This document shows, piece after piece, positions 1,188-61,178 of a stretch of DNA of 62,517 nucleotides. This DNA is from Elusimicrobiaceae bacterium (GTDB lineage: Bacteria; Elusimicrobiota; Elusimicrobia; Elusimicrobiales; Elusimicrobiaceae). The notes beneath the pieces were generated by a model that worked only from the letters and a program-made list of their open reading frames with translations, did no database searches and was not told the origin of the DNA. Position 1 is the first letter of the stretch. Every line of letters starts with the position of its first letter. A program made the position numbers and the translations under genes. Location: NCBI GenBank assembly GCA_017520185.1, contig JAFXGO010000031.1:1-62517 (forward strand). The letters are read 5' to 3'.

Positions 1188-1274
1188 ATAAAAATTATAT
1201 CAAAAAATACAAATTTCGCAAGCAAGTATTTCTCTATACATAAAAAGATTTTTTAAGTTAGTAAAACCTTTTTT

Positions 1275-1283
1275 TGCTACACT
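1275..1283 (+). promoter_or_regulatory. Extended -10 promoter, likely leaderless start
   Basis: TGC-TACACT ends 7 bases before the ATG at 1291, and there is no Shine-Dalgarno sequence. Transcription would start at or next to the start codon. It matches the TGC-TAnnnT pattern seen at four other genes with similarly short leaders in this window. Confidence 0.5.
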
Positions 1284-1290
1284 ATAAAGT

Positions 1291-32390: not shown

Positions 32391-32421
32391 AAAAACCCCG
32401 AGGCTTTCGCCTCGGGGTTTT
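32391..32421 (-). terminator. Terminator of the membrane-anchored protein cluster
   Basis: CCCCGAGGC pairs with GCCTCGGGG around TTTC with a T tail on the minus strand, 13 bases after the stop at 32434. Confidence 0.92.
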
Positions 32422-32433: not shown

Positions 32434-35400
32434 TTATGTACGGCTAACCCCACCTCTTTGAGAGCTTCCGTTTGATCCTCCGGGATCACTGCCATTACCA
32501 CTAGAAGCAACTGCCCTAGGTTTGTAATTTAATCCTAATTCCGCAACTCTAGTAACATAATCTAAAGCATCTTGGATAGGCATATTTCCGATCAGCTGAT
32601 CGCATTTTCCTTCATTAGCAAACAATATATCATTGTAAGTTTCTACATATGTTCTGCGATTATCATCCACTATTGTAGCCGGAGAACAGCTTAATCCTTC
32701 CACCTTAATGTGGTTAATTTTTCCATTAACCATACTGGCTAAGGGGTATTGTCCTCTAACCTTTACAGCTTCTATTTGCTCTTTAACGCTGCTGTACACA
32801 CCACCATTAGTGCAGGAAACATAGTTGCCCCAATGATACGGATCTCCAGAAAAACGCGGATCTACAACCATATTGTTACCTTTTTTCACATATTGGTTCG
32901 GGTAATAAGCAGAATCCAAACCAATATAGATAGCAGCCGCACCGAAGGTATTGGTCATTTCCAATCCGGCAGCTTTTCCTTGCGTATCTTCAGAGCTCAA
33001 AGCAACACCGCGCACCATAGTACAAACGGCAGCTCTGGGGACCTCAGTCTTTTGAAGTACACTCTTAGCAATATACATAGCATCTACAAACTCTGCCAAG
33101 AAGATTCCTTCATTATAGGAGTCAAACATAAAAGTCCCTTTTCTCTTTCCCGCATCCAAGGCATTGAATCCGTTTACTACATCAGTCATAAACTCAGCAG
33201 CCTTATTAGAACTACGCGTATCCAAACGGGCAGAATTCAAACGCTGTTTGCTATCTTTGCTATCATCGGACAAGTTAGGGAACAACTTCGCTGCATCCGC
33301 CTTTTGGACTTCAAATCTACCGCTTTGTACATTTAAAATACGGTGACCTTCCAACTCGGTAGAAATAGCCGAAACTTCTCTTGATAACAACAAGTACGGT
33401 TTCGTTTTATCCGTCAAAGTTTCCGGATCTGTCGGATTAATTCCGGGCGGCACATCAGTCATTTCCACGTTAGGGATGGTGGAGCTGTACTCAGCCGTAT
33501 CTCTGGACTCTTGATCTTTTTCTTTTGCCAACCACTTAGCGACTATTGTTTTAGGAGCTTCTGCAGTGGCATCGGCAAAATAAGCTGTTAAAGCATCCAA
33601 CTGAGCTTGATTTAACGGAGCTCTAAATACAGAGGCACCTGCTCCATTATCTTCTTCAGTAGAGTGGGTTCTAGCCGCAGCAACCTGAATGGGGGGGGTT
33701 AAGCCGTCTCCCACAATTTCTACTGTTACAGTAATTTTTTCTTCTGGCTTATTTCCATATACTTCAGGATCGTAAGCCAACACTGCATGAATGTCTCTTA
33801 AGTTGACAATATTTTTGGCCGTGATGTTAAAGTCAGTCCAATCACAAAGTGCTGAATCGCCGTCTTGACCTTCGATGTAGTTAGCAATGAAGTCCTTGTA
33901 CATCATAGGCAATGCTTTACGCATCTTACGCATGCCGTCAAAAGGATTCTTCTTCATTACATAACCTTCAATGGCCACAGGAATAAGCTTATCTTTAAAC
34001 TGTCCTATTTGCTGGTCATTCCAGTTTACACCTTTGGGGTTTTTGACCGTGGTAGTGGAATAGACCGAACCATTACTACTACCGACACCTCTATGTAAAT
34101 TTTTATCGGTTTCATCAACGACAACAGATTTCTGAGCTTCCTCAAGCAAGAACTTGTAATTATCATGGTTAAAGGTCTTGCCTTCCGCCAAATAAATTAC
34201 ACATTCATTCGCATATTTGTGCTCCGACAATCTGGTGTTATACATGCCCTTTTGACCATTTTGCACTCTGAAATGATCATTCGTAGCATTATCTTTGGAT
34301 GTGTGCATGACTTTAGCGTCAGATTTTTTTACGCTTGCAGCACCTTTCCCAGCGTCACCCGAATCTAAACCAACAACACTAAAACCGGCATCTATTTTTT
34401 CAGCTTCACAAAGCCTTTTGCCGTTAATTTGAACGTTCTTGGCGATGACGATGTGGAAGGCTTCATCATAACCTTCATCTTCAGAATATTTGGCACCGGG
34501 TTTCAGAACGAAAGTATGGTTGGCCATCTGCTCACAGTTGTAAGCCTCCAACACTTGAGTGTCAGTGCCGGTAAAGGCAGTTTCCATCTTGCCGGCATAT
34601 CCGGTCAGACATTTTCGTCTATTGCCGAACCAAGACAATTTGCCGGTAGCAGGAGCAGGTTCGTCCCAAGTGTTAGCATCTACTTCATTATCATTATTTT
34701 TTGCTTGTTCTACACTCGCCCCACCGATTTTACCCGTTATACAAGCACTTTTAAAATTTTCTTCACTTGCACAAGTTTCTGCATAGTGGCTAGCATGAGA
34801 AGAATTGTTTTTGAATTTTTCACACCATTCTGCCATCGTATAACCCGTGTCTCCGTCATAGAGATTACATTTTCCCGGAGCTCCGCCACTGGCAGATCTT
34901 CCACCCATAGAACCCATAGACCAGTCATCCGTAGCGGTGATTAAACAAGAGAGGAACGGATCTACAAATTTCAAGGTCATATCGGCCAAGCCTTTGATTA
35001 AAGGCTCTACCAAACCTTTTCTCCACAGGAAATATTCCCATTTCCATTTTTCCATTTCTTGTTGTTTCATCATGTCCCACCACCACGGAGTAATGCCTTT
35101 GTACTCAGAGTGCGGGTCCCACTTGCCGGCGCCGGCACCACCCACAAAATCACCACCGCCAAGACCGCCTAACGGGGCTTGGTTGGCTTTCAAGGGGTCA
35201 TACATGGCGTCGTTTAACGCTTGCAAAGCATTGGCTTTGCCCATAGCATCGCGGGAAGCTCTGGCCTGAGCGGCAGAGCCTTGACCAAAATAAGAGCGAG
35301 ACGGATTACCGGCAGAGCGCAGCGGCTGCAAAGAAACAGGCTTCACACCTGCTTTAGGAGCAGGAGCAGAAGATACTTTTGCCGCCGTCTTTAAGTTCGC

Positions 35401-35997
35401 ACCGCCAAAACGACCGAAACCGCCGCCACCGCCACGAAAGTTCATAGAAGCAGAACCTAAGGGGTTTACCTTAGTAGGTGCGGGGGTACTTCTTTGGAAA
35501 GAAGCTCTGGTGCTGGACGGTCTCTGAGAGCGGTAATTATCTCTATAAGAGGAGCGCGGAGTGGGCGGAGTGTAAGTATCGTCCAAACCGTCTCTATCGT
35601 AGCTGCCCATAGAGGGGGCCGGCTCCGGATCGCCCCACCCTTTGATTAAACTCAAAGGATCACGCACAGAAAGCTGAGCAATCTGGGCGGAGGGGTCTTC
35701 TATACTGGGGTCAAAACCGGAACGATCCGGTTCAAACACAGAATCGGTACCCGGAGTGATGATTGCGCCATCTTCCACCGAGCCGCTGTATTTATACAAG
35801 AAAGGCAACATCAGCAATGCCGCTGCAGCAGCCACAAAGAACGGCGCGTCCCGACGGGTGCGCTCAAACAACGTCTTTTTGGGCTTGCCATTGTTGCCGA
35901 CTTTAGAGGAAACACGTTTAGAGAACGGATTAAAAGCAGGCTTGCTGTTCTTAATCTTATCGCTAAAAGTGAAGGAATCCTTCTTATTTTCAGCCAT
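32434..35997 (-). CDS. Large membrane-anchored Cys-rich protein
   Basis: The preferred ATG at 35997 (MAENKKDSFT) follows GGAGG by 5 bases, giving 1187 residues. A basic cytosolic head (1-50) precedes one membrane helix (about 51-68), so the rest is periplasmic or surface-exposed. Residues 70-300 are Ser/Gly/Pro/Arg-rich, then a Trp-rich helical stretch (KGITPWWWDMMKQQ) and a long region with about 15 cysteines from residue 345 on. The tail is Gly/Ser-rich. No known domain was identified. It is the last gene of the cluster driven from 44613, but a foldable leader precedes it. Disulfide bonds are likely. Confidence 0.8.
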   Translation of the reverse strand: MAENKKDSFTFSDKIKNSKPAFNPFSKRVSSKVGNNGKPKKTLFERTRRDAPFFVAAAAALLMLPFLYKYSGSVEDGAIITPGTDSVFEPDRSGFDPSIEDPSAQIAQLSVRDPLSLIKGWGDPEPAPSMGSYDRDGLDDTYTPPTPRSSYRDNYRSQRPSSTRASFQRSTPAPTKVNPLGSASMNFRGGGGGFGRFGGANLKTAAKVSSAPAPKAGVKPVSLQPLRSAGNPSRSYFGQGSAAQARASRDAMGKANALQALNDAMYDPLKANQAPLGGLGGGDFVGGAGAGKWDPHSEYKGITPWWWDMMKQQEMEKWKWEYFLWRKGLVEPLIKGLADMTLKFVDPFLSCLITATDDWSMGSMGGRSASGGAPGKCNLYDGDTGYTMAEWCEKFKNNSSHASHYAETCASEENFKSACITGKIGGASVEQAKNNDNEVDANTWDEPAPATGKLSWFGNRRKCLTGYAGKMETAFTGTDTQVLEAYNCEQMANHTFVLKPGAKYSEDEGYDEAFHIVIAKNVQINGKRLCEAEKIDAGFSVVGLDSGDAGKGAASVKKSDAKVMHTSKDNATNDHFRVQNGQKGMYNTRLSEHKYANECVIYLAEGKTFNHDNYKFLLEEAQKSVVVDETDKNLHRGVGSSNGSVYSTTTVKNPKGVNWNDQQIGQFKDKLIPVAIEGYVMKKNPFDGMRKMRKALPMMYKDFIANYIEGQDGDSALCDWTDFNITAKNIVNLRDIHAVLAYDPEVYGNKPEEKITVTVEIVGDGLTPPIQVAAARTHSTEEDNGAGASVFRAPLNQAQLDALTAYFADATAEAPKTIVAKWLAKEKDQESRDTAEYSSTIPNVEMTDVPPGINPTDPETLTDKTKPYLLLSREVSAISTELEGHRILNVQSGRFEVQKADAAKLFPNLSDDSKDSKQRLNSARLDTRSSNKAAEFMTDVVNGFNALDAGKRKGTFMFDSYNEGIFLAEFVDAMYIAKSVLQKTEVPRAAVCTMVRGVALSSEDTQGKAAGLEMTNTFGAAAIYIGLDSAYYPNQYVKKGNNMVVDPRFSGDPYHWGNYVSCTNGGVYSSVKEQIEAVKVRGQYPLASMVNGKINHIKVEGLSCSPATIVDDNRRTYVETYNDILFANEGKCDQLIGNMPIQDALDYVTRVAELGLNYKPRAVASSGNGSDPGGSNGSSQRGGVSRT

Positions 35998-36019
35998 AAC
36001 AGCCTCCATTGAGGTATAT

Positions 36020-36098
36020 CTTCCCGAAAAATATCTTCGGGTACTGCTTGGGTCTTAACGGCCGCTTGGACACGTTAAGGCCGAGTACTACACAACTG
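36020..36098 (-). promoter_or_regulatory. Structured leader within the operon, before the 1187-residue gene
   Basis: On the minus strand TAGTACT with AGTAC, CTTAACG with CGTTAAG, and CCCGAA with TTCGGG can form nested and adjacent hairpins in the 108-base gap between genes. It does not match known riboswitches. It may protect or regulate the mRNA. Confidence 0.35.
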
Positions 36099-36105
36099 CA
36101 AATCT

Positions 36106-37752
36106 TTATAGCGACATCTTATCTCCAAACTCAGGGAAGAAATCTCCGCTCCCCCCTTGTTGGGCACCGCTACTTATATTAAATGTATCAAAAACTTCAC
36201 TATCTTTCAAGCCGTCTTTTACATCGTCCACTTTATCTTCGGCTTGGTCTTTCTTTTTTTCGCTATCTTTCAATTTCTGCTCGGCGGCTTTTAATGCGCT
36301 GTCATCTACCGATGTGCCCTCCGGTGCAGAGGCAACGGCGGCATCATATTCTGCTTTGGCTTTGTTATAAGCATCTAAGGCACTATCATATTCCGCTTGC
36401 GCCACTGTCAAAGCCTGACAACTTTGCGTAAAATCGTTTGCATAGGTATTTAATCTTTCAGTGGTGCAGGTGCCTTCTTTGCTTAACTTTACACTGCCAC
36501 AATTTTCGCTCATCGTTTTGATGGTATTTTTCACCGTATTACAATTGCTGCTTACTTCACTTAAAGATTGGCTCCAGCCTGCTACATCGGCATCACACGT
36601 TCTGGGTACGGTGGTGGTAATAGTGTTGACCAAGTTGATAGATTGCTCCATCTTTTCCATCATCACGCCGTTGGCTTCTGCGCCGATGGTGCGGCATTGT
36701 TCTTCTTTTAAAAGTTGCATTTGTACGTCTTCCAAATCTTTTACCAAATCTTCTCCGCCCATCATCACACCACTGCTCAGACCCAACGAATCATAAACTT
36801 TTTTGGGCATTTCCATGCCTATATATCCGGCAGCGGCAAGCTGTTTTTTAAGCATCAGTTGCTTGGCCCGATTGGACGCCTTACTCATCAACCATATTTG
36901 CGCCAAGTCACGCTGGGGTTTGCTATTGCTTTTAACCTGTGCGTTTAAACTGCTCAGCGGAGCAACCGTTGTGCTTACGCCGATGGCTTGGTCTAACTGT
37001 TCATTGCTGAGTTTGGCGGCTTTATCCACAGCCAAAGCAAACCAATCCGGTGAAATAGAACCGACCACCGCCCCTTTGGGCAACAGTTTGGCAGCGTCCA
37101 ACACACCTTTACGCATAGAGGCCGTTTGAGCCGAGCGGGCCATCAAGTTGGCATCTGCGCCAAAATAAACTTCTTGCATGTTTTTGGCTGCCTCATTTTG
37201 GCGTGCTTCTTGGCTAAAGTCATTGACCTTGCGGTTTAAGGCGCCGTCTCTTTCAGCCAGACCGGTATAAACACCGGACAAACCTTCCGCACCCAAACCG
37301 CGCTTTCTGCGTTCTGCATTAACGGCATCTACATCAAACAAACCTGTTGAATAACTGCCAAGTTTGTAGGCTTGCGCATTTTTTCTGTCAAAGAGCGAAA
37401 TTTCTTGCTCAGTGTTGCGTTTAGACGACAAAAGTCGGGTTCCCTCGCCAGCCCACGTCAAGAGTGCACGTCCAAAACTCATAGACTGGGTTTGCTGCGC
37501 TGAAAATCCCATCCACCAAGCTAAATTGCGTAATCCCGGCAAAGAACCTACCGGTACTATAAATATAATGGAAAACAAGAAAAAAACAAGTGCCAAAAGC
37601 ATCAACCACTTTTTTCTGTCAAAGCGTTTTTCTTGGGTTGATTTAACGGCCGTTTCTTGCGCATTGGGCAAAACAGGCTGAGCCTGATTTGCTTGTGGCG
37701 TAGGAACTGCTGTTTCCGAAAGTGCCGGAGGCACTTGTTTTTCCGTTTTCAT
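36106..37752 (-). CDS. Membrane-anchored coiled-coil protein
   Basis: The 548-residue product has a Pro/Gln-rich cytosolic head, one membrane helix (about 49-69), and a long helical external region. Six cysteines are spaced in the segment from about 355 to 450 (EEQCRT, PRTCDA, SSNCNT, SENCGS, EGTCTT, QSCQAL), and a charged coiled coil of AEYDSALDAYNKAKAEYD type follows before a Gly/Phe-rich tail. AGGAG precedes the ATG. The topology matches its neighbours. The function is unknown. Confidence 0.8.
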   Translation of the reverse strand: MKTEKQVPPALSETAVPTPQANQAQPVLPNAQETAVKSTQEKRFDRKKWLMLLALVFFLFSIIFIVPVGSLPGLRNLAWWMGFSAQQTQSMSFGRALLTWAGEGTRLLSSKRNTEQEISLFDRKNAQAYKLGSYSTGLFDVDAVNAERRKRGLGAEGLSGVYTGLAERDGALNRKVNDFSQEARQNEAAKNMQEVYFGADANLMARSAQTASMRKGVLDAAKLLPKGAVVGSISPDWFALAVDKAAKLSNEQLDQAIGVSTTVAPLSSLNAQVKSNSKPQRDLAQIWLMSKASNRAKQLMLKKQLAAAGYIGMEMPKKVYDSLGLSSGVMMGGEDLVKDLEDVQMQLLKEEQCRTIGAEANGVMMEKMEQSINLVNTITTTVPRTCDADVAGWSQSLSEVSSNCNTVKNTIKTMSENCGSVKLSKEGTCTTERLNTYANDFTQSCQALTVAQAEYDSALDAYNKAKAEYDAAVASAPEGTSVDDSALKAAEQKLKDSEKKKDQAEDKVDDVKDGLKDSEVFDTFNISSGAQQGGSGDFFPEFGDKMSL

Positions 37753-37773
37753 TTCAAACTCCTGTAAAAACTC

Positions 37774-38016
37774 TTAGTTGGAAAGAGATACAGCCCCCAC
37801 CACTTGTCCTTGGTTATATTCGCGGCGCAGTTGCGCTTCTTGAACTCTTCTTTCATGAGCTTGCAAACGTTCCTTGCGCACGCGTTGCACCTCTTGGACT
37901 GCTTTTTTATAAATCAATTCCCGTTGTGCTTGGCGGTGTTGGGCATTAAAATAAAAATATAAAACGGTACTTGCAATAAACAAAAGGACTGATACCACTT
38001 GAAAAAGTACTTTCAT
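37774..38016 (-). CDS. Small membrane protein, duplicate copy B
   Basis: The ATG at 38016 (MKVLFQVVS) follows AAAGGGG and gives 80 residues: one membrane helix (residues 4-25), then a charged helix with Gln/Arg/Glu, ending in the tail AQLRREYNQGQVVGAVSLSN. That tail is almost identical to the protein encoded at 39544. The two small genes each follow a larger membrane protein, so the pair was duplicated as a unit. The start overlaps none of its neighbours, with 11 bases to the upstream stop. No known family. Confidence 0.78.
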   Translation of the reverse strand: MKVLFQVVSVLLFIASTVLYFYFNAQHRQAQRELIYKKAVQEVQRVRKERLQAHERRVQEAQLRREYNQGQVVGAVSLSN

Positions 38017-38027
38017 AATCGCCCCTT

Positions 38028-39521
38028 TCAATCTTTGCCTTTATCGTTGTTAGTTAACACTTCTTCGGCGGAAGAAAAACCGGCATCTATCCCTTTTTCT
38101 GAGGCATATTGTTTTAAAGAATTAAGCATATCTTGACCGAATTTTTTACCGCCCGATTTTCCGTTCAAATCCGTCGCATTGGTTTTTGTACCCATTTTAT
38201 CGGTTGCCGCGGAAGCCAATTTATCAGATTGTTTGGAAAAATCAAAATAACTGATCACAATCGCCGCCACCATCAATGCACCCATCACAATACCGGCAAT
38301 GGCCCAACCCTGTTCCTCTTTATACTTGTCTATGTATTGCCAACAATCTGCTATGTAAAAACCGATAAGCGCCAACATAGCCGCCCCCAAAACAAAAGCC
38401 ATTACTTTACTGGTAGTATCCCCTTTCATTAAAGAATTAATTGTTAATCCAGCCGCCACTGTACCTGCCATCAAGAAAAACATATTTTTCGCCAAACGGC
38501 TTCTGTGTTCTTTTCTTTCTTCTTCCGTGGTATCCAATTCATCAATGGCTGTATTGAGATTTCTTTCCGTATTATTTAATTTATTTTCAAAATCTTCCGC
38601 CCCTACGGCCCATTCTGACGTATCCAAAGAATCCCCCAACATCTGCATACCCAAAGCGCGTTGGTCCTCACTCATAAATACCTGCGAATGAGAGTTCGCC
38701 TGCTTGCTGCTAGCGGCGGCCACTTTGGCAGACTGCACCGCTATGCCGCGCAAACTGTTTCCTGCGCGACTGTTTGATCCCCCTTGCCAGCGCACCTGTT
38801 TGGCTGAAGAGTCAGCTGACGGATTTTCATTTAAACTTGCCAAACGAGGCAGGTTCGTTTTTCTTTTTTCAAATCCGGTAGAAATAGATTGGGGACCTAG
38901 CATGGCAGAATTGACTTGCTCCGCGCGCGAATTAGGCACATTTCCATAGGGAGCAAAAGAGGAAGAAGATCCCTCCGCATTTACTTTTGGCATGGAAGCG
39001 CGAGGCAAACTGCCTCTGTCCTCACCCAATTTATTAACAACGGTTTGATGAGCCGCAGAAACGGCATCACCCACACCGACCCCATTAACAGAGGAAGCGC
39101 CGTCAGCATCTTTTCCGTTCGGGCCGATTTCCGTCGCACCTTGATTTAACCCAAGGCCGGCCTCTCCGCCGCTAAATACCGTTCCTTCAGTTTGTTCGGC
39201 ATCTATCGTCAAAGAAGAAACTGCCTCTTCCGATTCGTCTAATTGGGCCAACTCGGCCTTCGCGAAGGGATATTGCTCCTCAGCGAAAGCCAAATTTGCC
39301 CCTTGATTATTAATGTGTATAGAAGAATATTCGCTAGGTAAATTTTCACCGGAACGTATAATTTGGCTTAAAGACTTTACCTTTTCAGGCATAGAATCTG
39401 CCGGATCGGTGGCATAATTATAAACGCCCAATGCCGCCCAACCACCAAGCACTACTGCACCCAGCAGGCCGGTCTTACGAATAGCACCTGTTCTATTGCT
39501 CCATATTTTTCGAATATTCAT
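38028..39521 (-). CDS. Membrane-anchored Gly/Ser-rich protein, duplicate copy B
   Basis: The 497-residue product has a basic head and N-terminal membrane helix (about 16-36), a Ser/Gly/Ala-rich exported stretch (40-260) with EGTVFSGGEAGLGLNQGAT, a helical segment (IAVQSAKVAAASSKQ, then QVFMSEDQ), a coiled region, and about three more membrane helices (345-425). It shares these blocks with the gene at 39819, for example YNYA(T/S)D, SLSQII, and FSGGEAGLG. AGGAG precedes the ATG. The function is unknown. Confidence 0.8.
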   Translation of the reverse strand: MNIRKIWSNRTGAIRKTGLLGAVVLGGWAALGVYNYATDPADSMPEKVKSLSQIIRSGENLPSEYSSIHINNQGANLAFAEEQYPFAKAELAQLDESEEAVSSLTIDAEQTEGTVFSGGEAGLGLNQGATEIGPNGKDADGASSVNGVGVGDAVSAAHQTVVNKLGEDRGSLPRASMPKVNAEGSSSSFAPYGNVPNSRAEQVNSAMLGPQSISTGFEKRKTNLPRLASLNENPSADSSAKQVRWQGGSNSRAGNSLRGIAVQSAKVAAASSKQANSHSQVFMSEDQRALGMQMLGDSLDTSEWAVGAEDFENKLNNTERNLNTAIDELDTTEEERKEHRSRLAKNMFFLMAGTVAAGLTINSLMKGDTTSKVMAFVLGAAMLALIGFYIADCWQYIDKYKEEQGWAIAGIVMGALMVAAIVISYFDFSKQSDKLASAATDKMGTKTNATDLNGKSGGKKFGQDMLNSLKQYASEKGIDAGFSSAEEVLTNNDKGKD

Positions 39522-39543
39522 TTATAAACTCCTGCAAGGACTC

Positions 39544-39810
39544 TTAGTTGGAAAGAGATACAGTCCCCACCACTTGTCCTTGATTGTACTCTCTGCGCAG
39601 TTGCGCTTCTTTGCGCCTTTTGTCATACTCTTGCTGACGCGCTCTGCGCTCTTGAGCAACCTGATTGAGAGCCTTGATATAAATCAATTCCCGTTGGGCT
39701 TGGCGATGCTGGGCCGAAAGGTGCAAGTAGCCCACTACCAGCAAGATAATAATCACCCACGCAAAAGCTACAGAAAATATGGTTTTTAGTCTGCTATCTA
39801 CTTTTGACAT
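39544..39810 (-). CDS. Small membrane protein, duplicate copy A
   Basis: The preferred ATG at 39810 (MSKVDSRLKT) follows GAGGT and gives 88 residues. One membrane helix (about 13-32) is followed by AQHRQAQRELIYIKAL and a basic coiled stretch, ending in AQLRREYNQGQVVGTVSLSN. Compared with the copy at 37774, the central part has diverged while both the HRQAQRELIY motif and the tail are nearly identical, so the ends are under constraint. It starts 8 bases after the gene at 39819. Confidence 0.78.
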   Translation of the reverse strand: MSKVDSRLKTIFSVAFAWVIIILLVVGYLHLSAQHRQAQRELIYIKALNQVAQERRARQQEYDKRRKEAQLRREYNQGQVVGTVSLSN

Positions 39811-39818
39811 AGCGCACC

Positions 39819-41306
39819 TCACCCATTTTTCAGTCCGGATTTATCATCATCACCAAACAACATCTTTCCTTCTTCAATGGCATTAGTGATAGACATACCG
39901 GGACCTAGAGTACCTAAAACAGCTCCCGCAAGCAAAGACACGCCCATATTGGTAGATAATGCTCCTGTGGCAATATTATTAAACCATGTTGTCACAGCTT
40001 TACTAACCCATGCAAAAACTACACCAGTCGCAAACACGGCTGCCATTGCTATACCGGCAATTGCCCAGCCTGAGCCCTCTTTGTATTTGTCAATATATAC
40101 AGCACAATCTGCAACAAATAAACCGATAAGACCCGCCAATAACGCAGTGACCGCAATAGCTACCACAAGTCCCCAAGGCTTATTACTTTTCATCGTTGCA
40201 ATAGTCATCATACCCAAAAACGTGGTAAACAATAAACTAACCATCTGCTTTTGCAAACGAGTACGATGGTCTTTACGTTCTTGTTCGGTGGTGTCTATTT
40301 CGTCAATTTTGGCACCTAAATTACCCTCTTTGTTTTTTAGATCTTCTTCAAAATCTTCCGCCGCACCTACGCCGCTATCTCCGGCACCTACATCATCACC
40401 TACCGCATGCGTACCTAAGCCTTGTTGAGAAGAAGCCATAAACACTTGCGCATGGGAGTTTGTTTGTTTATGACGGGCGGCCGCCACTTTGGAAGACTGC
40501 ACCGCAATATTTTTCAAATCACGCCCCATTGGGCTATTGATACCGCCTCTGTAATTTACATTTCTATTCGGAGCGACAAAACCCGAGCCGGTGGCTCCTC
40601 TTAAACTGGCAGGCGCGTGAACTAAGGTCGTACCTTCTAAGCTGGGTATACCGGAAATAGAAGACGGACCCACCGGTGTAGCAGAAGGAGTGCCACTGGG
40701 GCTAACACCTGCATTACCGTACGGAGAAAAAGACGAAGCCCCGCCTGCATTTACAGTAGCAATAGAGGCACGTTTTAAGCCGCCGTTGTTTACACCGGCC
40801 TCGCCTAACTTATTGATAATGGTTTTATTGGCGGCCTCTACGGCATCCCCACCGCTACCGCCATTATTACCGCTACCGCCTGCGCCGGCACCGCTACCGT
40901 TGGGGCCCACTTCCACCGCACCTTGATTAAAACCAAGTCCGGCTTCCCCACCGCTAAAAACAGTGCCTTGCACGTTAATGGGGTCAATACCCTCTAAGGC
41001 TTGTACCTGTGCTTCTCCTCCGTCAAAGCTGGCTAATAAGGCCCCTTCTTGAAGGGCGCGCTCCTCAGCAGAGGCAAACTCCACACCGCGAGCGTCTAAA
41101 TTAATGCCGGAATATTCTCTTGGCAACTCCCCACCGGAAGAAATAATCTGGCTTAAAGAACGAACTTCCGGTTGTAAGGCTGCCGGTCTATCCGACGCGT
41201 AATTATACACGTTTAATGCCACCATACCGCCTGTTAAACTGACTGCAAACAAGCCGGCTTTACTGATAGCACCGATTTTGCTTTTTAAAAGTTCTAAGAC
41301 TTTCAT
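39819..41306 (-). CDS. Membrane-anchored Gly/Ser-rich protein, duplicate copy A
   Basis: The ATG at 41306 (MKVLELLKSK) follows GGAGGG and gives 495 residues. It has an N-terminal membrane helix (about 15-34), a long Gly/Ser/Asn low-complexity segment (polyglycine near 140-155), the IAVQSSKVAAARHKQ helix with QVFMASSQ, a coiled region ending TTEQERKDHRTRLQKQ, and several membrane helices in the last 150 residues. It is a paralog of the gene at 38028. A hydrophobic tail distinguishes it. No known domain was recognised. Confidence 0.8.
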   Translation of the reverse strand: MKVLELLKSKIGAISKAGLFAVSLTGGMVALNVYNYASDRPAALQPEVRSLSQIISSGGELPREYSGINLDARGVEFASAEERALQEGALLASFDGGEAQVQALEGIDPINVQGTVFSGGEAGLGFNQGAVEVGPNGSGAGAGGSGNNGGSGGDAVEAANKTIINKLGEAGVNNGGLKRASIATVNAGGASSFSPYGNAGVSPSGTPSATPVGPSSISGIPSLEGTTLVHAPASLRGATGSGFVAPNRNVNYRGGINSPMGRDLKNIAVQSSKVAAARHKQTNSHAQVFMASSQQGLGTHAVGDDVGAGDSGVGAAEDFEEDLKNKEGNLGAKIDEIDTTEQERKDHRTRLQKQMVSLLFTTFLGMMTIATMKSNKPWGLVVAIAVTALLAGLIGLFVADCAVYIDKYKEGSGWAIAGIAMAAVFATGVVFAWVSKAVTTWFNNIATGALSTNMGVSLLAGAVLGTLGPGMSITNAIEEGKMLFGDDDKSGLKNG

Positions 41307-41370
41307 AAGTCCCTCCGACCTCATTAATTAAAATATTTACAAATACTGACAACAACTCTTTACTGCACAT

Positions 41371-42861
41371 CTACTTCCGAGAATTTTCTCTCAATCTCAA
41401 AGAATCTCTTGCTACCTCACCTGAACGGGTATGCACTACCCCACCGTTTTCAATAGCACCTTCATCTTTTTCTAACTTTCTGCCAAACTCTTTGGCAGAC
41501 GCAGCTGCCCAAGCAATCAATACCGCAACGGGGCCGCCCCCGATTACTCCATACACCCAATTCATAACATGCTTGGCTTTTTTCCAATATTGATCCGTAG
41601 CATAATGGGCACCGCTTTCTCCTTTGGCAGGTTTCACGTTCCAACGGGCCTCAAAGGCTTCAATTTTAGCTTTCATTTTATTGCGTAAATTTCTTGCCAA
41701 TATATAGCCCAAAAAACTCGTAAAAGAGATTCCGGTACAGTCCCGAACAAATTTGTTCAGTTCTTTAACTAAGGCTTTACGCGCATCGGCATAGCTTTCT
41801 GCTTCTTGCTGAAAGTCAGCCGTCTTCGCGCCGATACCGGCTACAAAAGAATCTCCGCCCGTCAAATCTACAGATCCACCGCCACCACCGGTATTTACTT
41901 TTGAGCCAGCGCTTAAAGTAATACCTGCCGGGCCGTATCCTTCACCGGACATAAATATATCACTGGCATCACCGCCTCTGTTGGCAATATCAGCCGATTG
42001 TTTGGTCATGGCGGTCAGGGAGTCCAACTCCATTCCCTGCACTTTGCCACCGCGTCTCCAACGGTCTCCCCCTGCATAGAGCGGGGTATCAATCGGACCG
42101 GAGGCAGGAGATAAAGAGGGCTTAATCGTGGTCCCCTCTACTGTAGGAGATGAGTTCGGGCCGGAATAAGTACTTCCACTTAAACCGTCGGCACCCAAAT
42201 CATGCCCGCCACCCACATTTAAAAGCGGATTTTTACCCCAGTCTCTATTGCGCGCGCCAAAGGACGGTTTTCCGTCTCCATCGCCACCATTGGCTCCGTC
42301 GGCAGGGGCAGGGGTAGCGCCTTCTGCACTTGCAGCAGCGGCTGCGGCGGCCTGTTGTTGGGCTTGAACATTGGCCTGCAAAGCGGCAATTTGCGCCTGA
42401 ATGGCGGCCATATCATTTCCGCCTTTGGTATTGATAGACGGAGTACCCTGTTGGCCCACTGCCACACCTAACCCGGCCGTTTCACCGTCCATTTTATAAG
42501 CCACCAAATCTTGCTCCTGTCTCTCCACATCTAAGAGCACAGGTTTTGCATTTTCTTCGTTCATCATGCGCAAACCGTGTGAAAGCGTGGCCTGAAAACC
42601 GGATTTAACTTCCCCCCCTTCCACAGGCGGTGTGCTGACACCGGCATAACGGCCGGCGGCACTATGACCTGCTACATAAACGATGTCTCCTTCATCATAA
42701 GAAGAAAAAACAGTATCCGGATTGATATCTTGCTGAGAGGTAAGCGCAAAATATCCGCCCACACCTGCCACCGCTATACCGGTAGCAAGGCCTAAAGTCT
42801 GCATACCGGATAAGGCCACCTTACCTGTACGAGTCATCAATATTTTTTTAATGATATTCAT
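41371..42861 (-). CDS. Membrane-anchored Gly/Ala/Gln-rich protein
   Basis: The 496-residue product has a basic head, a membrane helix (about 20-41), a region with a Gln/Ala run (QAQQQAAAAAAAS near 165-180), Gly-rich spans, the helix SLTAMTKQSADIANRGG followed by SDIFMSGEG, and a second hydrophobic stretch near 435-460. AAAGGAG precedes the ATG. Its layout parallels the genes at 39819 and 38028 but the sequences are not alike overall. It may be a distant relative. The function is unknown. Confidence 0.78.
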   Translation of the reverse strand: MNIIKKILMTRTGKVALSGMQTLGLATGIAVAGVGGYFALTSQQDINPDTVFSSYDEGDIVYVAGHSAAGRYAGVSTPPVEGGEVKSGFQATLSHGLRMMNEENAKPVLLDVERQEQDLVAYKMDGETAGLGVAVGQQGTPSINTKGGNDMAAIQAQIAALQANVQAQQQAAAAAAASAEGATPAPADGANGGDGDGKPSFGARNRDWGKNPLLNVGGGHDLGADGLSGSTYSGPNSSPTVEGTTIKPSLSPASGPIDTPLYAGGDRWRRGGKVQGMELDSLTAMTKQSADIANRGGDASDIFMSGEGYGPAGITLSAGSKVNTGGGGGSVDLTGGDSFVAGIGAKTADFQQEAESYADARKALVKELNKFVRDCTGISFTSFLGYILARNLRNKMKAKIEAFEARWNVKPAKGESGAHYATDQYWKKAKHVMNWVYGVIGGGPVAVLIAWAAASAKEFGRKLEKDEGAIENGGVVHTRSGEVARDSLRLRENSRK

Positions 42862-42873
42862 AACCTTGCTCCT

Positions 42874-44475
42874 TTATTGTTTTTTCCACTCGTTATCTTC
42901 TCCCCTTTTCCATATATTCCCGTAAGCATCTTTAAAAATGTTTCCATTATCGCTATAATTACCGTATACCTTTCTTCCTTTCACTTCCAAAGTTGACGTT
43001 GTACTACTATTTGCTCGTTGAGAAATCGATCCAAATCTTGCTCTTCGGCCGGCTGCTTGCGCATTAAACATACCGGCACCACCATATTTATTCTGATCCA
43101 AATCTTTAAATCCTTCTTCTCTGATGATGCGCGCATCTTTTTTTGACACTTTTACCTCCGGTGCATTTTCCGCAGGTTTGCTTAAAGTATATGTACCATC
43201 TTCACCGGCTGCGGAAACATTTAAATGCTTACCATCATCATATACTATTTGTCTCTTAGAGGCATCATAATTGCCACCCGTTCTTTCAGCAAAAGATTCT
43301 ATCCCTCCTTGACCGTACACTTTTTGTGTTTCCCAATTTTTACCCGTTTCTAAAACCGGCACTTCTGGCGCATGCTCTGCCTGCCAATCCTGCCAACCAG
43401 CCTCTTTACCTGCCCGTTCCATTTTTGCATCATTCATAGCATTTTGCGCCGCATTCATGCCCATATTGATCAATCCTTCCGCTAATTTTTTGCAGACATC
43501 AATCACAACTTCTTCCCACCATTCCTTTTCTTCTTCTTCATGTTGTTTTTCGGCGGCTTCAGTATTGGCGTCGCCTACAGCATCATCTAAACCGCTTAAG
43601 TCGGCACTTTCCATCGGGGCATTGGTATCTAATTCTAAGCCTTTTAAATTATCTAAGTTAATTTTACCATCTTCCATAAAAGCATCACTGCCCTGCACAT
43701 TACCGCCCATCATGGCTTTTTTGGCATTGAGTAGTTTGTCATTTTTGAGGTTGGCAGCCGCTCTGCTGGCTTGGGCCGTTTGAAACAGGGCCTTACGAGC
43801 ATCACCTTTACCGGGACCTTTGGGAAGGAATTTATCGCTTCCTTTTTCTTGAGTGCGGAAGTTAGAAAAGTCCCCCTGCGGGCCGAAGGTGCTTTTCATA
43901 CCGGAGCCGCTTGCACTTTTGAGATTGGCAGAACTCAAACTGCCCACCTGCGTAGGGCTGGCCGCACCGCCTGCGCTTCCACCCCCATACCGACCGGGAC
44001 GATACTGCGAAGCAGTGGACGAAGCAGAAGCGTCCAGCTTGGCTTGCTCTGCTTGGGCGGCATCTTCGGCTTGGCGGGCCTCTTTTTCAGATTTGCTATA
44101 CAAACCGGCGTGGCCTTTGTCGTTCAAGTCCGGATATTTAGAGGCCAAAAGGTATTGCTCCGCCTCATCGGTGGAAAAGGGCATATTGGCCAAGTCATAA
44201 CCGCGCGTTTCAAAATTGTTAAAATCTTCCGCTTCCGGCCCACCCACAGAGGCAATGCTGATCAGCGCCACTAAAGATACCACCGCCACCGCGCCCCAAG
44301 TATAGGCTTGTTTGCGGTCCATCTTTTGTAATTTCTTCCATGCTTCACCCAACAGATTATTCTGACGGAGAGCATGGGTTGTAGAAGAGCCCGCAGCAAC
44401 GGCTTTTTTCTTTTCTTCTTGATTTTTTTGGTTGCCTGCTCTTACTTTGGAACCTTTATTAAACAGGTTAAACAT
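42874..44475 (-). CDS. Membrane-anchored low-complexity protein, first of the cluster
   Basis: The ATG at 44475 (MFNLFNKGSK) follows AAGGGG by 8 bases; a GTG at 44484 would add three codons. The 533 residues comprise a long basic head, one membrane helix (about 58-77), a Ser/Gly/Ala-rich segment, a helical part (LFQTAQASRAAANLKN, then SDAFMEDG), an acidic Glu/Trp stretch, and a Tyr/Gly/Asn-rich C-terminus with NGNIFKDAYGNIWKRG. It is the first gene after the promoter at 44590. No family was recognised. Confidence 0.8.
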   Translation of the reverse strand: MFNLFNKGSKVRAGNQKNQEEKKKAVAAGSSTTHALRQNNLLGEAWKKLQKMDRKQAYTWGAVAVVSLVALISIASVGGPEAEDFNNFETRGYDLANMPFSTDEAEQYLLASKYPDLNDKGHAGLYSKSEKEARQAEDAAQAEQAKLDASASSTASQYRPGRYGGGSAGGAASPTQVGSLSSANLKSASGSGMKSTFGPQGDFSNFRTQEKGSDKFLPKGPGKGDARKALFQTAQASRAAANLKNDKLLNAKKAMMGGNVQGSDAFMEDGKINLDNLKGLELDTNAPMESADLSGLDDAVGDANTEAAEKQHEEEEKEWWEEVVIDVCKKLAEGLINMGMNAAQNAMNDAKMERAGKEAGWQDWQAEHAPEVPVLETGKNWETQKVYGQGGIESFAERTGGNYDASKRQIVYDDGKHLNVSAAGEDGTYTLSKPAENAPEVKVSKKDARIIREEGFKDLDQNKYGGAGMFNAQAAGRRARFGSISQRANSSTTSTLEVKGRKVYGNYSDNGNIFKDAYGNIWKRGEDNEWKKQ

Positions 44476-44589
44476 AGGCTTCACCCCTTATTTATATATA
44501 AAAATTCACTCTTGCTGACCCGTAAAAAACAAATTTTTACGCTCAAACACAGAGTTTAAATCTTCCGCGCAATACCAGCGCTTACCATT

Positions 44590-44618
44590 AGTATAAACGG
44601 TTTAAAAGGGTTTGTCAA
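44590..44618 (-). promoter_or_regulatory. Near-consensus promoter of the membrane-protein cluster
   Basis: On the minus strand TTGACA (44613-44618), a 17-base spacer and TATACT (44590-44595) are close to the sigma-70 ideal. The -35 lies within the stem of the preceding terminator. The leader to the ATG at 44475 is about 108 bases and can form a CGTAAAAA/TTTTTTACG hairpin. Confidence 0.75.
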
Positions 44619-44652: not shown

Positions 44653-45186
44653 CTAACGGTTTTCCGGCCGGACGTACGGCAATACGCGCTCGTTCGGGCC
44701 TACATACTTAATCACTTCAATTTCACCGCCGGTCTCACACAAAAAATCAAACCCTTTTAAACAACTCATATCACCTTTACAAAGTTGCAATTTGTCATAC
44801 TTACATAAAAAGTTAATACGCGGAGGAGCCGTCTTTACCTTAAGCACCACTTTGGTCCACGTACCGGAAACGTCTATCTTTAAATCCATAGAACGTAAAC
44901 TTAAAAAACGCACCATGCCGGGATTGTTAAAACCCAAATAATGCTCCACTTTTTTCTTAATATCTTTTTGCAAGAATCGGCGGTCCCAACGCGTTAAATA
45001 TGCCGCAGTGTGAGATTGCAGCTGATAACGACGGGCAGCATAAAAACCGGCAATTTCCATCTTTTGAGACAAGACCAACAAACCAAAAATTTTAATGATA
45101 AATACAATAAAAATAACCAAGACCGGAAACAGAAGTACCGTCTCGGTAGTTGCTTGACCTTTGCGCGAAGAAAAAATATTTCTCAT
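44653..45186 (-). CDS. TadE-like pilus assembly protein
   Basis: The 177-residue product opens RKGQATTETVLLFPVLVIFIV, a TadE-type prepilin-like start (conserved Glu six residues after Gly) with one membrane helix. The rest is external, with cysteines near the C-terminus (LCKYDKLQLCKGDMSC, FDFLCETG). It is a minor pilin-like part of Tad systems. The start overlaps the TadG-like gene by 4 bases (ATGA). It is the last gene of this subunit and ends at a terminator. Confidence 0.8.
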   Translation of the reverse strand: MRNIFSSRKGQATTETVLLFPVLVIFIVFIIKIFGLLVLSQKMEIAGFYAARRYQLQSHTAAYLTRWDRRFLQKDIKKKVEHYLGFNNPGMVRFLSLRSMDLKIDVSGTWTKVVLKVKTAPPRINFLCKYDKLQLCKGDMSCLKGFDFLCETGGEIEVIKYVGPNERVLPYVRPENR

Positions 45187-46295
45187 AGTCCCACCTTTAC
45201 GCTATATTTGGGCAACGGATTGGGCCAAACACAGTTATTATTACTGCGCGGACAAGAAACCGACACGCTATTTTGCACATACGGAGTATAGCGTTGTGTT
45301 AAATTAATATTAAAGCGGTTTTGCGGTAATGTATATTTTTGTTTTAACACAATACCACGTTTTAAACGGCGCAATTTGTTGCGGCTGGCAGGATTCAAAT
45401 AAGCAAATTGGAAAAGTTTGGCCTTAATAGCCTCTGTCATGTTTAAATCCACAGGATAGGAACCGGAGTGCATGGTAGAGCCTTTATAATCTGCCGTCAC
45501 ATAAAAACGTGTTTTATCAATTTCAAAAGCAGGTGCCTCCAACTCAAACCGGTCCAATGTAGCAGCCGCCTGTTTGCCACAGTCTACTTGGCGGCAATCG
45601 CGCGTGTTTAAATAATAATTCTCACGAAACATACGGGAGTTCTTAATCGTGTCTTTATAAGAGTAGGTTTGAGAATGATAAATAGACCCTGTGCGCACAA
45701 AAATGGTGGCATACTCTTTAATCGTGGTCAGACCGATGCCGGAGGCTCCGAAAAAGTAATTGTCTGCGATAGACTTATTAGTCAACACATAGCGTTCGTC
45801 TTCATCAGGAGAGTCCGCCGGGTCTTCTTTCAACCAGCCAGACCTTTTATCCCCATAATATTTAAAACCCCAGTTGGTAGATTGCGGTGCGGGAGCCGGG
45901 TTGGAAATAGCACCATTGGCCCCTCTTTCATAGTTAGGGCCAATCGTCGGGAAAGCACCGGCCGTATAAAACACGTCAAATACGGTCAGCTTATCTTGTT
46001 CCGTACTTGATTCTTTGGGAGGAACCACAATGTTCATGGTTTTCATAACCCTGTACGGGAGAGGGCCATTTACCTGCGCCAAAGCATTCAAATAACCGCT
46101 GGCACTGGACATCTGTGAATAAGCACCGCTATCTAAGGCAAACTGCTGACGAACTTTAGTCATAGACAACTTAGACATTTCAAACAGCAAGTAGACCACC
46201 AAAATAAAAATAGGCGCAAGCATCACCGCAGGCAACAAAATCTGTGCCCGACGGCTCTGTACGGTCCTTTTTACTTGGTTTATATAGTGGTACAT
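45183..46295 (-). CDS. TadG-like pilus-associated protein
   Basis: The 370-residue product has an N-terminal motif RRAQILLPAVMLAPIFILVVYL and then a membrane helix, in the style of TadG/TadE pseudopilins though with Ala for Gly at the cleavage position. A long external domain follows, with few cysteines. It starts 1 base after the small Flp-like gene and overlaps the TadE-like gene at its 3' end. Homology to TadG is based on position and the N-terminus only. Confidence 0.68.
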   Translation of the reverse strand: MYHYINQVKRTVQSRRAQILLPAVMLAPIFILVVYLLFEMSKLSMTKVRQQFALDSGAYSQMSSASGYLNALAQVNGPLPYRVMKTMNIVVPPKESSTEQDKLTVFDVFYTAGAFPTIGPNYERGANGAISNPAPAPQSTNWGFKYYGDKRSGWLKEDPADSPDEDERYVLTNKSIADNYFFGASGIGLTTIKEYATIFVRTGSIYHSQTYSYKDTIKNSRMFRENYYLNTRDCRQVDCGKQAAATLDRFELEAPAFEIDKTRFYVTADYKGSTMHSGSYPVDLNMTEAIKAKLFQFAYLNPASRNKLRRLKRGIVLKQKYTLPQNRFNINLTQRYTPYVQNSVSVSCPRSNNNCVWPNPLPKYSVKVGL

Positions 46296-46480: not shown

Positions 46481-47167
46481 TTATTCTTCGTCCTCAGTAA
46501 ATTTAGTACCTTCCGAAGAAATTAATCCTTTCTCTATGGCTTTCACCACCGCTTCGGTACGGCTGCTGACGCCTAATTTATGGAAGGCACTGTTTAAATG
46601 ATTTTTAATGGTTTTAACACTACAACCTAATTCTTTGGCTAACTCTTTATTGCTCAGCCCTTTGCCCAACAAATCCATCACTTTAATTTCCGTTTTGGTC
46701 AAAGTGGCTTGGCTGGGCATACCGCCATCACCCATACGGCGAAGACCATGCAAGAGTTTACCCATTAATTGCTGAGGGATCATTAATCCTTCCGTCGTGA
46801 AAGTTTTAATGGAATTGACCAACTCCACCGCAGGCAACATTTTGGATAAATAGCCATTGGCTCCGGCCTGAATGGCATCTAAAACATGAGCCTCATCTTC
46901 AAAGGAAGAAAGCATCAATACGTTTACTTCGGAAGTATATTGACGAATTTGGCGCGTAGCCGCGATGCCATCTTGTTTCGGCAATTTAATATCCATCAAC
47001 ACCACATCCGGTTTCAATTTTTTGGCTAAGGCCACCGCTTCCAAACCATCAGCCGCTTCACCCACTACCTCAATCCACTTCTCGCTGCTTAATACATCTT
47101 TAATCCCTTCGCGAAAAAGTGTTTGATCATCAGCAATGAGCACCCTTACTTTTTTCTTTTTATTCAT
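46481..47167 (-). CDS. Response regulator, NarL/LuxR type
   Basis: The 228-residue product has an N-terminal receiver domain (acidic pair near residue 13, phospho-acceptor Asp in DVVLMDIKLPKQDG at about 59, the Lys-type switch region MLSSFEDE and SKMLP) and a C-terminal LuxR helix-turn-helix (TKTEIKVMDLLGKGLSNKELAKEL). It would bind DNA when phosphorylated. It follows two kinase genes and leads into three pilus genes, so its likely targets are the pilus genes. Stop is 4 bases before the small pilin start. Confidence 0.92.
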   Translation of the reverse strand: MNKKKKVRVLIADDQTLFREGIKDVLSSEKWIEVVGEAADGLEAVALAKKLKPDVVLMDIKLPKQDGIAATRQIRQYTSEVNVLMLSSFEDEAHVLDAIQAGANGYLSKMLPAVELVNSIKTFTTEGLMIPQQLMGKLLHGLRRMGDGGMPSQATLTKTEIKVMDLLGKGLSNKELAKELGCSVKTIKNHLNSAFHKLGVSSRTEAVVKAIEKGLISSEGTKFTEDEE

Positions 47168-47193
47168 TTGTCAACTCCCGTACAGTTTTCAAA

Positions 47194-48315
47194 TTAGTTT
47201 CCGTTTACCGACAAAGTAAAATTAAATGTGGCCCCTAAGCCTACCCCCTGACTTTCAGCCCAAATGCGACCACCGTGATTTCCGATAATATCTTTGGCAA
47301 TCGACAAACCCAAACCCAAGCGACCAACGCGAGCTTTATCCCCTACTTGCATAAAGCTGGTAAATAAAGCCGGTGCTTGCTCCGGTTCAATACCGTCCCC
47401 AGAATCCTTTACGGACACTTTAGCATTTTTTTCGTCTAGTTTGCTGACGATTACTTCTATTTTTCCATAATCTGGGGTATGACGGACGGCATTTTCCAAA
47501 AGATTTGAAATAACTTGGCGAATGCGTTTCTCGTCGGCCAAAACAGGGATTGCCCCCGCACTTTCAAAGGTAAGTTGTATATTTCTCTTACCTGCTTTGA
47601 CTTTAAAAATTTCGGCCGTCTTTTTCATGCTGGCTGTTAATTCAAACGGTGCTTTTTCTATGCGCAGTTTCCCTTTTTCAATGGCAGCCCAGTCCACTAA
47701 GTCTTTAATTAAATGTTCTATTTGTCCGATACTTTCGTCCATATAAGACATTTTCTTGGATTGGTCCTCCGTTGGGATCATCTTCTTTTTAAGCATATCA
47801 AAGCTCATTTTAAGTGTCATCAAAGAATTAGACAAATCGTGCGAAACAATGGAGAAAAATTTGGACTTCATATTATTAAGCCTGTCCAAATCTTCATTAC
47901 GAGATTTAAGTTGTGCCAATAACTCTTTGTTGCTCTGTTCCAAAAAATATTTGTCTAAAGCGCGATTAATCGTGCGTTTCAAATAATCAAAATCTACCGG
48001 TTTAATCAAAAAATCATATACAGATTCTTTCATCGCTTCCATGATAGAATTTAAAGAAGCATAAGCCGTAATCATTAAAATTTGGCTATCTTGGTTAAAG
48101 CCGCGTATTTTGCGAATTAAATCCAAGCCCGTCTCATCGGGCAAATTATAATCCATCAAAATTATGTTAAAAAATTCAGAACTAACCAAGTCTAAACATT
48201 CTTGCCCATTACCGGCCTGATAGACTTTGTAGCCTTCAATTTCCAACAAATCTGCCATCGTTTCCCGCAAATTGTTATCATCATCTACCACTAAAATTTT
48301 TACTTGCTTATCCAT
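47194..48315 (-). CDS. Hybrid receiver - histidine kinase
   Basis: The preferred ATG at 48315 ([13 protein letters not shown]) follows GGAG and gives 373 residues. An N-terminal receiver (phospho-Asp in NIILMDYNLPDETG, Lys in FLIKPVDFDYL) is followed by a coiled stretch and a kinase core: phospho-acceptor His in FFSIVSHDLSNSLM and an ATPase domain with LLENAVRHTP, DSGDGIEPEQ and GLGLSIAKDI. It has no membrane helix, so it takes signals from the cytosol. It overlaps the upstream kinase by 8 bases. Confidence 0.92.
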   Translation of the reverse strand: MDKQVKILVVDDDNNLRETMADLLEIEGYKVYQAGNGQECLDLVSSEFFNIILMDYNLPDETGLDLIRKIRGFNQDSQILMITAYASLNSIMEAMKESVYDFLIKPVDFDYLKRTINRALDKYFLEQSNKELLAQLKSRNEDLDRLNNMKSKFFSIVSHDLSNSLMTLKMSFDMLKKKMIPTEDQSKKMSYMDESIGQIEHLIKDLVDWAAIEKGKLRIEKAPFELTASMKKTAEIFKVKAGKRNIQLTFESAGAIPVLADEKRIRQVISNLLENAVRHTPDYGKIEVIVSKLDEKNAKVSVKDSGDGIEPEQAPALFTSFMQVGDKARVGRLGLGLSIAKDIIGNHGGRIWAESQGVGLGATFNFTLSVNGN

Positions 48316-51226: not shown

Positions 51227-51236
51227 TTTCCCCCCT

Positions 51237-51509
51237 TTATTCTTTATCTTCCAATACCACACGGATACCGCGTATGCCGATACCGCACAAGATATTGTAT
51301 ACCCCTAAAAATACGACGGTATATACCAAGAACAACAAGGTGTTTAAGATGGCCGTCATAATCATGTTCATCAGAAAAGAGAGGGTAAAAGAGGAATCCG
51401 GTCCAAACATTCCCAAAATACCACTGACTAACATGATGACAAATACCGCCACCGGAAATACAGAAAAAAGAACATTCATAATACCAATTTTTCTAATTTC
51501 TACTTTCAT
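51237..51509 (-). CDS. Small membrane protein, unknown function
   Basis: The 90-residue product has two long hydrophobic helices (about 10-34 and 44-75), with the sequence MNVLFSVFPVAVFVIM in the first, and a charged C-terminus. No family was recognised. AGGAGA precedes the ATG. It lies within the Tad operon, 10 bases before the thioredoxin-fold gene and 31 bases after the sensor-like gene at 51541. Confidence 0.72.
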   Translation of the reverse strand: MKVEIRKIGIMNVLFSVFPVAVFVIMLVSGILGMFGPDSSFTLSFLMNMIMTAILNTLLFLVYTVVFLGVYNILCGIGIRGIRVVLEDKE

Positions 51510-51540
51510 ATTCTCTCCTAAGGGAAAACCCCTCTATTTA

Positions 51541-52662: not shown

Positions 52663-52664
52663 TT

Positions 52665-54944: not shown

Positions 54945-54946
54945 AA

Positions 54947-56569: not shown

Positions 56570-56578
56570 GAATATTTC

Positions 56579-59601: not shown

Positions 59602-59612
59602 ATCACTTTTCC

Positions 59613-60365: not shown

Positions 60366-60421
60366 TTTTTCTCCTTAAATTAAATCCCAGTTTTATTAAA
60401 GCAAATTTTCAACTATATCGG

Positions 60422-61155: not shown

Positions 61156-61178
61156 AGACTCCTCCTGATTTTTAAAAA

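What the first reader, a model, noticed from the sequence alone, without database searches (positions are those of the whole stretch)
32434..44475. Eight-gene cluster of membrane-anchored low-complexity proteins behind the Tad locus
Eight consecutive minus-strand genes (32434, 36106, 37774, 38028, 39544, 39819, 41371, 42874) encode proteins with an N-terminal membrane helix and long Gly/Ala/Ser-rich or Cys-rich external parts. I recognise no known domain. They share one promoter and follow the Tad pilus genes directly. This could be a new envelope or surface module working with the pilus. Seen: gene layout, helices, composition. Inferred: a common function.
Basis: partly seen in the sequence, partly recalled or inferred. 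Interest (0 to 1): 0.82.

Follow-up and report, generated by a model that had tools for sequence, protein, structure and literature searches.

The report
Tad-linked membrane-anchored envelope protein cluster
Gut Elusimicrobiaceae bacteria carry, usually right behind their Tad pilus genes, one operon of mostly related membrane-anchored proteins with no known family; fixed roots, floppy stalks and fast-changing outer heads suggest a pilus-associated envelope scaffold, but the function is untested.

Summary
Eight minus-strand genes (32434-44475) form one predicted transcription unit with its own promoter-like site (44618-44590) and terminator, right behind a Tad pilus locus. The eight are six families (F, E, D, C, B, A); the D-C pair is tandemly duplicated. 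D and E are one family, and A, D and F share sequence motifs. None reaches a Pfam or NCBIfam cut-off.

The genome is an animal-gut Elusimicrobiaceae, apparently of the Candidatus Avelusimicrobium genus. The order F-E-(C)-D-(C)-B-A is kept in 35 of 35 relatives read. In 28 of 31 checkable genomes of the genus it lies 13-15 kb behind tadZA. It is intact but away from Tad in two, and away from Tad and partly dispersed in some sister-genus genomes, including the probable E. minutum.

In A and F the roots are strongly conserved while the outer parts diverge. A homologues in sister genera end in an OmpA-like peptidoglycan-binding domain, not detectable in the window's own A.

Best reading: an inner-membrane-anchored, periplasm-bridging accessory scaffold of the Tad machine (confidence 0.4). 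The link to Tad rests on gene neighbourhood only. The proteins are not minor pilins by the usual cleavage motif.

The parts
42874..44484 (-). F (536 aa, ATG at 44475): basic tail, one TM helix (64-82), conserved acidic juxtamembrane part, Gly-rich stalk, hypervariable C-terminus
41371..42861 (-). E (496 aa): N-terminal helix, Ala/Gln/Gly-rich stalk, a further hydrophobic helix near the C-terminus; paralogue of D
39819..41324 (-). D copy 1 (501 aa): N-terminal helix, disordered stalk, C-terminal helical bundle with hydrophobic helices
39544..39822 (-). C copy 1 (92 aa): one TM helix plus charged helical tail; overlaps D copy 1 by 4 bases
38028..39521 (-). D copy 2 (497 aa)
37774..38031 (-). C copy 2 (85 aa); overlaps D copy 2 by 4 bases
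36106..37752 (-). B (548 aa): cytoplasmic tail, one TM helix (50-68), six invariant Cys in the outer part, coiled-coil end
32434..36009 (-). A (1191 aa): highly conserved cytoplasmic tail and TM helix, disordered stalk, large Cys-containing outer part with an Ig-like sandwich (724-846)
44590..44618 (-). promoter-like site TTGACA-17-TATACT in front of F
   Evidence: consensus match only
32392..32421 (.). palindromic terminator-like hairpin (13 pairs) behind A
   Evidence: consensus match only; T run scored on the + strand
44653..45186 (-). TadE-like gene (tadE2), the last Tad gene before F
   Evidence: PF07811 E 0.0015, below cut-off; prepilin motif RKG|QATTE
45183..46295 (-). TadG-like gene
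   Evidence: PF13400 E 0.19, weak; conserved beside tadE2 across the order
46481..50191 (-). response regulator and two sensor kinases inside the Tad locus
   Evidence: sequence (receiver and kinase motifs, own knowledge); kept across relatives
50282..54047 (-). x326 protein, HAMP protein and TPR protein (TadD-like)
54060..58858 (-). TadC, TadB and a TadZ-TadA fusion ATPase
58867..60913 (-). secretin (244 aa), RcpC/CpaB and TadE
60931..61373 (-). two Flp-type pilins (60931-61155: KEG|QNTIEY; 61179-61373: RKG|QTAIEY)
   Evidence: sequence; PF04964 only weak (E 0.18) for the second

Best explanation
The operon makes an inner-membrane-anchored accessory scaffold of the Elusimicrobiaceae Tad pilus machine. 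Each large subunit has a fixed N-terminal root (cytoplasmic tail plus membrane helix), a long Gly/Ala/Ser-rich disordered stalk in the periplasm, and a C-terminal part: Cys-containing or Ig-like modules in A and B, an OmpA-like peptidoglycan grip in A of sister genera, and helices that appear to re-enter the membrane in D and often E. The conserved roots would dock on constant machinery at the inner membrane. The outer parts would hold the machine to the cell wall or face the outside, and have diverged quickly. C would be a small coiled-coil partner. Shown: gene order, predicted single transcription unit, kinship of D with E and shared motifs of A, D and F, conservation gradient in A and F, OmpA-like match in sister-genus A. 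Inferred: that the proteins form a complex, where the heads lie, and that Tad is the partner.
For: Order kept in 35 of 35 relatives read. F in 64 of 66 genomes of the genus, 36 of 36 good-quality ones. F is 13-15 kb behind tadZA in 28 of 31 genus genomes (coordinates) and behind tadE2 in six sister-genus genomes. Outside the family, four genomes of family f2 have one membrane-anchored Gly/Ala-rich gene of the same build at the same place behind tadE2 (homology not shown). A and F: roots conserved, outer parts divergent. A-F and D-F profile similarity far above shuffled controls. Sister-genus A proteins: profile hits 40 PDB sequences, all of the OmpA/Pal/MotB peptidoglycan-binding type, best E 1.8e-5. 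Precedent: CpaD of the Caulobacter Tad machine is predicted OmpA-like and proposed to tie the secretin to peptidoglycan (PMC13170226).
Against: Own promoter-like site and terminator. Block intact away from Tad in G046 and G055 (L060, L071), and away from Tad or dispersed in G094, G114, G116, G151, G264 and G109. The OmpA-like domain is not detectable in the window's own A. No protein-protein or expression data. Most other Elusimicrobiota have Tad without a detectable F.
Confidence: 0.4

Rival explanations
1. An independent envelope complex (wall anchoring, adhesion or envelope stability) that sits beside Tad by history or for co-regulation only.
For: Own promoter-like site and terminator. The six-gene block stays whole where it has moved away from Tad (L060, L071), and sister genera keep the genes unlinked or split.
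Against: Linkage to Tad in 28 of 31 genus genomes and six sister-genus genomes; restricted to genomes that also have Tad, although that is weak because Tad is near-universal in the phylum.
Confidence: 0.28
2. Minor pilins that build a variable tip on the Tad pilus, like the Kil Tips of Myxococcus.
For: Constant N-terminus with variable outer part, as in Kil Tips (PMC12075869). D and E keep an invariant Gly between the short basic leader and the hydrophobic stretch.
Against: A, B, C and F show no G|xxxxE prepilin site in front of their helices, and A, B and F have tails of 45-60 residues before the helix (sequences). D/E have no Glu at +5 and a Lys near +1 to +4. D has extra hydrophobic C-terminal helices. 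The locus already has TadE, TadE2 and TadG-like genes.
Confidence: 0.12
3. Substrates exported through the Tad secretin, or surface-displayed adhesins that only use the machine for export.
For: Fast-evolving outer parts, an Ig-like sandwich in A, a collagen-like Gly-rich insert in one A (L060).
Against: Membrane anchors at the N-terminus and conserved cytoplasmic tails; D (and often E) with further membrane helices; OmpA-like wall-binding domain in sister-genus A.
Confidence: 0.12
4. A contact-dependent toxin set in which D is the toxin and C its immunity partner.
For: The D-C pair overlaps by 4 bases and is tandemly duplicated. The D copies look mosaic against the relative's single D: copy 1 closer in the N-terminal part, copy 2 in the C-terminal third.
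Against: C is one conserved family, not matched to particular D tails, and precedes D in much of the genus. No known toxin domain above cut-off. The gene order is stable, unlike toxin islands.
Confidence: 0.05

Closest known systems
Caulobacter Tad CpaD (OmpA-like lipoprotein of the secretin module; PMC13170226)
   Same: Predicted OmpA-like, peptidoglycan-binding part linked to a Tad machine; sister-genus A has such a domain.
   Different: CpaD is a 225-residue outer-membrane lipoprotein; A is a roughly 1200-residue inner-membrane-anchored protein with a long disordered stalk, and the window's A lacks a detectable OmpA domain.
Kil pilus Tip complexes, KilL/M/N (PMC12075869)
   Same: Tad-associated proteins with constant N-terminal and variable exposed parts, specific to one lineage.
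   Different: Kil Tips are processed minor pilins with a pilin-like fold in sets of three; no prepilin site here in A, B, C, F, and D has extra C-terminal membrane helices.
MotB-type anchors (membrane helix plus OmpA-like domain)
   Same: Single N-terminal TM helix plus a peptidoglycan-binding domain (sister-genus A; MotB-related chain 8vvn_B among the hits).
   Different: Much longer, Cys-rich, no motor partner identified; similarity confined to the OmpA-like stretch.

Membership tests
Tad/Flp minor pilins (Kil Tip-like) | Prepilin leader ending in G with Glu at +5 before the hydrophobic helix | tested here: not met
   Read directly in the sequences and alignments: absent in A, B, C, F. D/E have an invariant G but no Glu +5, so for D/E alone the test is inconclusive.
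Tad/Flp minor pilins (Kil Tip-like) | Pilin-like fold and assembly into heterotrimers at the pilus end | not testable with these tools
   Single-chain models only; A and D gave no Foldseek match with E <= 0.001.
OmpA-like domain (PF00691), A of sister genera | Sequence match to the family | tested here: met
   Profile A6 matches 40 PDB sequences of OmpA/Pal/MotB type, best E 1.8e-5; Pfam matches in 6 of 11 members, best 5e-4, below the curated cut-off.
OmpA-like domain (PF00691), the window's own A | Sequence match to the family | tested here: inconclusive
   No Pfam match in any of 27 genus members at 0.01, no genome-wide hit at A, profile comparison not significant. The outer domains could not be folded alone.
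Tad pilus locus (neighbouring genes) | TadA-type ATPase, TadB/TadC platform, secretin, RcpC, TadE, Flp pilin | tested here: met
   T2SSE E 2e-62 and TIGR03819 E 3e-99 (below its trusted cut-off), T2SSF twice, secretin, RcpC, TadE; Flp motifs read; prepilin peptidase elsewhere.
Module as a Tad component | Required for Tad assembly or physically part of the machine | not testable with these tools
   Only gene neighbourhood is available.
Polymorphic toxin with immunity | Toxin domain plus matched immunity gene | tested here: inconclusive
   No toxin domain above cut-off in Pfam/NCBIfam; C not matched to D tails. An unknown toxin domain would be missed.

The most novel reading that the evidence does not exclude
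A previously undescribed, family-wide envelope machine of gut Elusimicrobiaceae, built mainly from one expanded protein family with constant roots and fast-evolving heads, that braces or functionalises an otherwise ordinary Tad pilus, perhaps for contact with gut partners.
Probability: 0.25. Interest if true: 0.75.

Novelty: new variant of a known kind. Interest (0 to 1): 0.5.

Why it matters
Tad machines are known mostly from Proteobacteria and Myxococcota. Here nearly a whole family of animal-gut bacteria carries a conserved set of uncharacterised envelope proteins usually tied to Tad, in which the part near the inner membrane is kept and the outer part changes fast. If they belong to the machine, they would show how a Tad pilus is adapted to another envelope and to gut surfaces. 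The probable E. minutum, a cultured relative that carries at least F, E, C and A, would make the question testable.

Tried and rejected
Pfam, NCBIfam and PHROGs scans of the window proteins, and Pfam scans of whole alignments of A, B, D, E and F: only sub-cut-off hits, mostly coiled-coil or membrane-helix noise. PDB sequence profiles of A, B, D, F: nothing usable (the best D hit, E 4e-4, is a designed coiled-coil chain). Foldseek on A and D: no match with E <= 0.001. VIA-align on A shows only a common Ig-like sandwich at 724-846, Z up to 8.5, which says little about function. Homology of the single Tad-adjacent gene of family f2 with A-F: same architecture and place, but profile scores (E 0.02-0.3) lie too close to the shuffled controls to claim it. 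The window's A as OmpA-like: not significant. Plasmid relatives of D: no match. RNA elements: none. Literature: Tad in Elusimicrobia is noted (PMC6668835, PMC8809381); nothing found on this module.

Full report
What is there. The eight genes are real and as described. They reduce to six families, which I call F (42874), E (41371), D (39819 and 38028), C (39544 and 37774), B (36106) and A (32434). The D-C pair is a tandem duplication: the two D copies are 45% identical, and none of the other 40 genomes searched showed a second D match. The unit has its own promoter-like site, the only 11/12 match in 19.5 kb, in the gap behind tadE2, and a strong palindromic terminator behind A. These are consensus matches, not proof.

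Neighbourhood. Upstream lies a Tad locus: two Flp-type pilins (read), tadE, rcpC, a short secretin, a TadZ-TadA fusion, tadB, tadC, a TPR protein and a HAMP protein (TadA match), two sensor kinases and a response regulator, then a TadG-like and a TadE-like gene (weak matches). A prepilin peptidase sits elsewhere in the genome.

Whose genome. Hits in named genomes are Elusimicrobiaceae/Elusimicrobiales MAGs (some records are titled only 'uncultured bacterium'), mostly from animal guts, including Candidatus Avelusimicrobium excrementipullorum. The genus is therefore most likely that one. Genome G109, a single contig of 1,643,562 bases, is taken to be Elusimicrobium minutum from my memory of that genome's size, not from a tool.

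Spread. F is found in 64 of 66 genomes of the genus and in all 36 of good quality. In a sample of 295 genomes of the phylum, F hits occur only in four genera of the same family. The order F-E-(C)-D-(C)-B-A is kept in all 35 loci read; in one clade C lies between E and D instead of between D and B, and some loci are cut by contig ends or show no called C. Comparing coordinates, F lies 13-15 kb behind tadZA in 28 of the 31 genus genomes that appear in both; G055 (22 kb, other order) and G046 (220 kb) are exceptions and G003 is split over contigs. In sister genera the unit, or its start, is behind Tad genes in G084, G088, G091, G120, G186 and G213. It is away from Tad in G094, G114, G116, G151, G264 and in G109, where F-E-C and A lie at different places.

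Kinship of the proteins. D and E are one family (E 2e-43). A and F share about 125 columns in the stalk region, and D and F share a motif of about 24 columns (L-x-x-A-S-M-x-x-A-S-G). Scores of 68 and 63.5 stand against at most 32 and 34 in 30 composition-keeping shuffles each. B and C could not be linked to the others.

Conservation gradient. In A the cytoplasmic tail and membrane helix have mean pairwise column identity 0.72, the outer 800 residues 0.09-0.31. In F the juxtamembrane part has about 0.6, the last 190 residues about 0.07. B, D and E are more even. I infer a constant partner near the inner membrane and a fast-changing environment further out.

Domains. AlphaFold gives the window's A a membrane helix, a disordered stalk (68-245) and ordered outer parts, with an Ig-like sandwich at 724-846. 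D is mostly disordered, with a confident C-terminal helical bundle. A proteins of sister genera end in a stretch whose profile hits 40 PDB sequences, all of OmpA/Pal/MotB peptidoglycan-binding type as far as their names and my knowledge of them go. Pfam agrees below its cut-off. The window's own A shows no such match. The outer part of A has thus been exchanged, or has diverged beyond recognition, between genera.

The D duplication. Against the single D of a near relative (L041), copy 1 is closer in the first 120 columns (0.58-0.72 against 0.43-0.44) and copy 2 in the last 170 (0.32-0.65 against 0.18-0.37). This fits recombination or unequal divergence of the tail.

How it may work. Best supported is an inner-membrane-anchored scaffold that bridges the periplasm and, at least in sister genera, grips peptidoglycan, associated with Tad by neighbourhood. 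Caulobacter provides a precedent for an OmpA-like anchor in a Tad machine (PMC13170226). A tip complex like Kil (PMC12075869) is less likely because the prepilin site is missing. An independent envelope complex is the strongest rival.

Verdict. New variant of a known kind, interest 0.5.

Noticed in passing
window 56579-58858: TadZ (ParA/MinD-like) and TadA are fused in one 759-aa protein. Full-length or partial matches to the fusion occur in 121 of 150 genomes of the phylum.
   Followed up: partly
window 58867-59601: The secretin is only 244 aa, with little more than the secretin domain.
   Followed up: no
window 26076-26552: A lone type IV pilin-like gene (MKKGFTLIELLVVVLIIGILSAVALPQY) outside any visible pilus operon.
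   Followed up: no
window 61397-62365: Outer-membrane-type beta-barrel-like protein with a weak UPF0164 match next to the pilin genes.
   Followed up: no
L181 and L189 (G178, same family): Behind tadE2 there is a longer run of Gly/Ala-rich membrane-anchored genes (658, 485, 370, 186... 484 with a B match, 839 aa), an apparently expanded version of the module.
   Followed up: partly
L171, L172, L175, L216 (family f2): One membrane-anchored Gly/Ala-rich gene (354-475 aa) directly behind tadE2, same build as F; homology not shown.
   Followed up: yes
L060:4485-8705 (G046, protein A): A collagen-like Gly-rich repeat insert (PGANGANGANGGPGGAGG...) in the outer part of A.
   Followed up: no
L149:4379-11971 and 45-3791 (probable E. 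minutum): Two very large ORFs (2530 and 1248 aa) shortly upstream of its F-E-C genes.
   Followed up: no
window 46481-50191: Two sensor kinases and a response regulator are embedded in the Tad locus and kept across the order, so the locus may carry its own regulation.
   Followed up: partly
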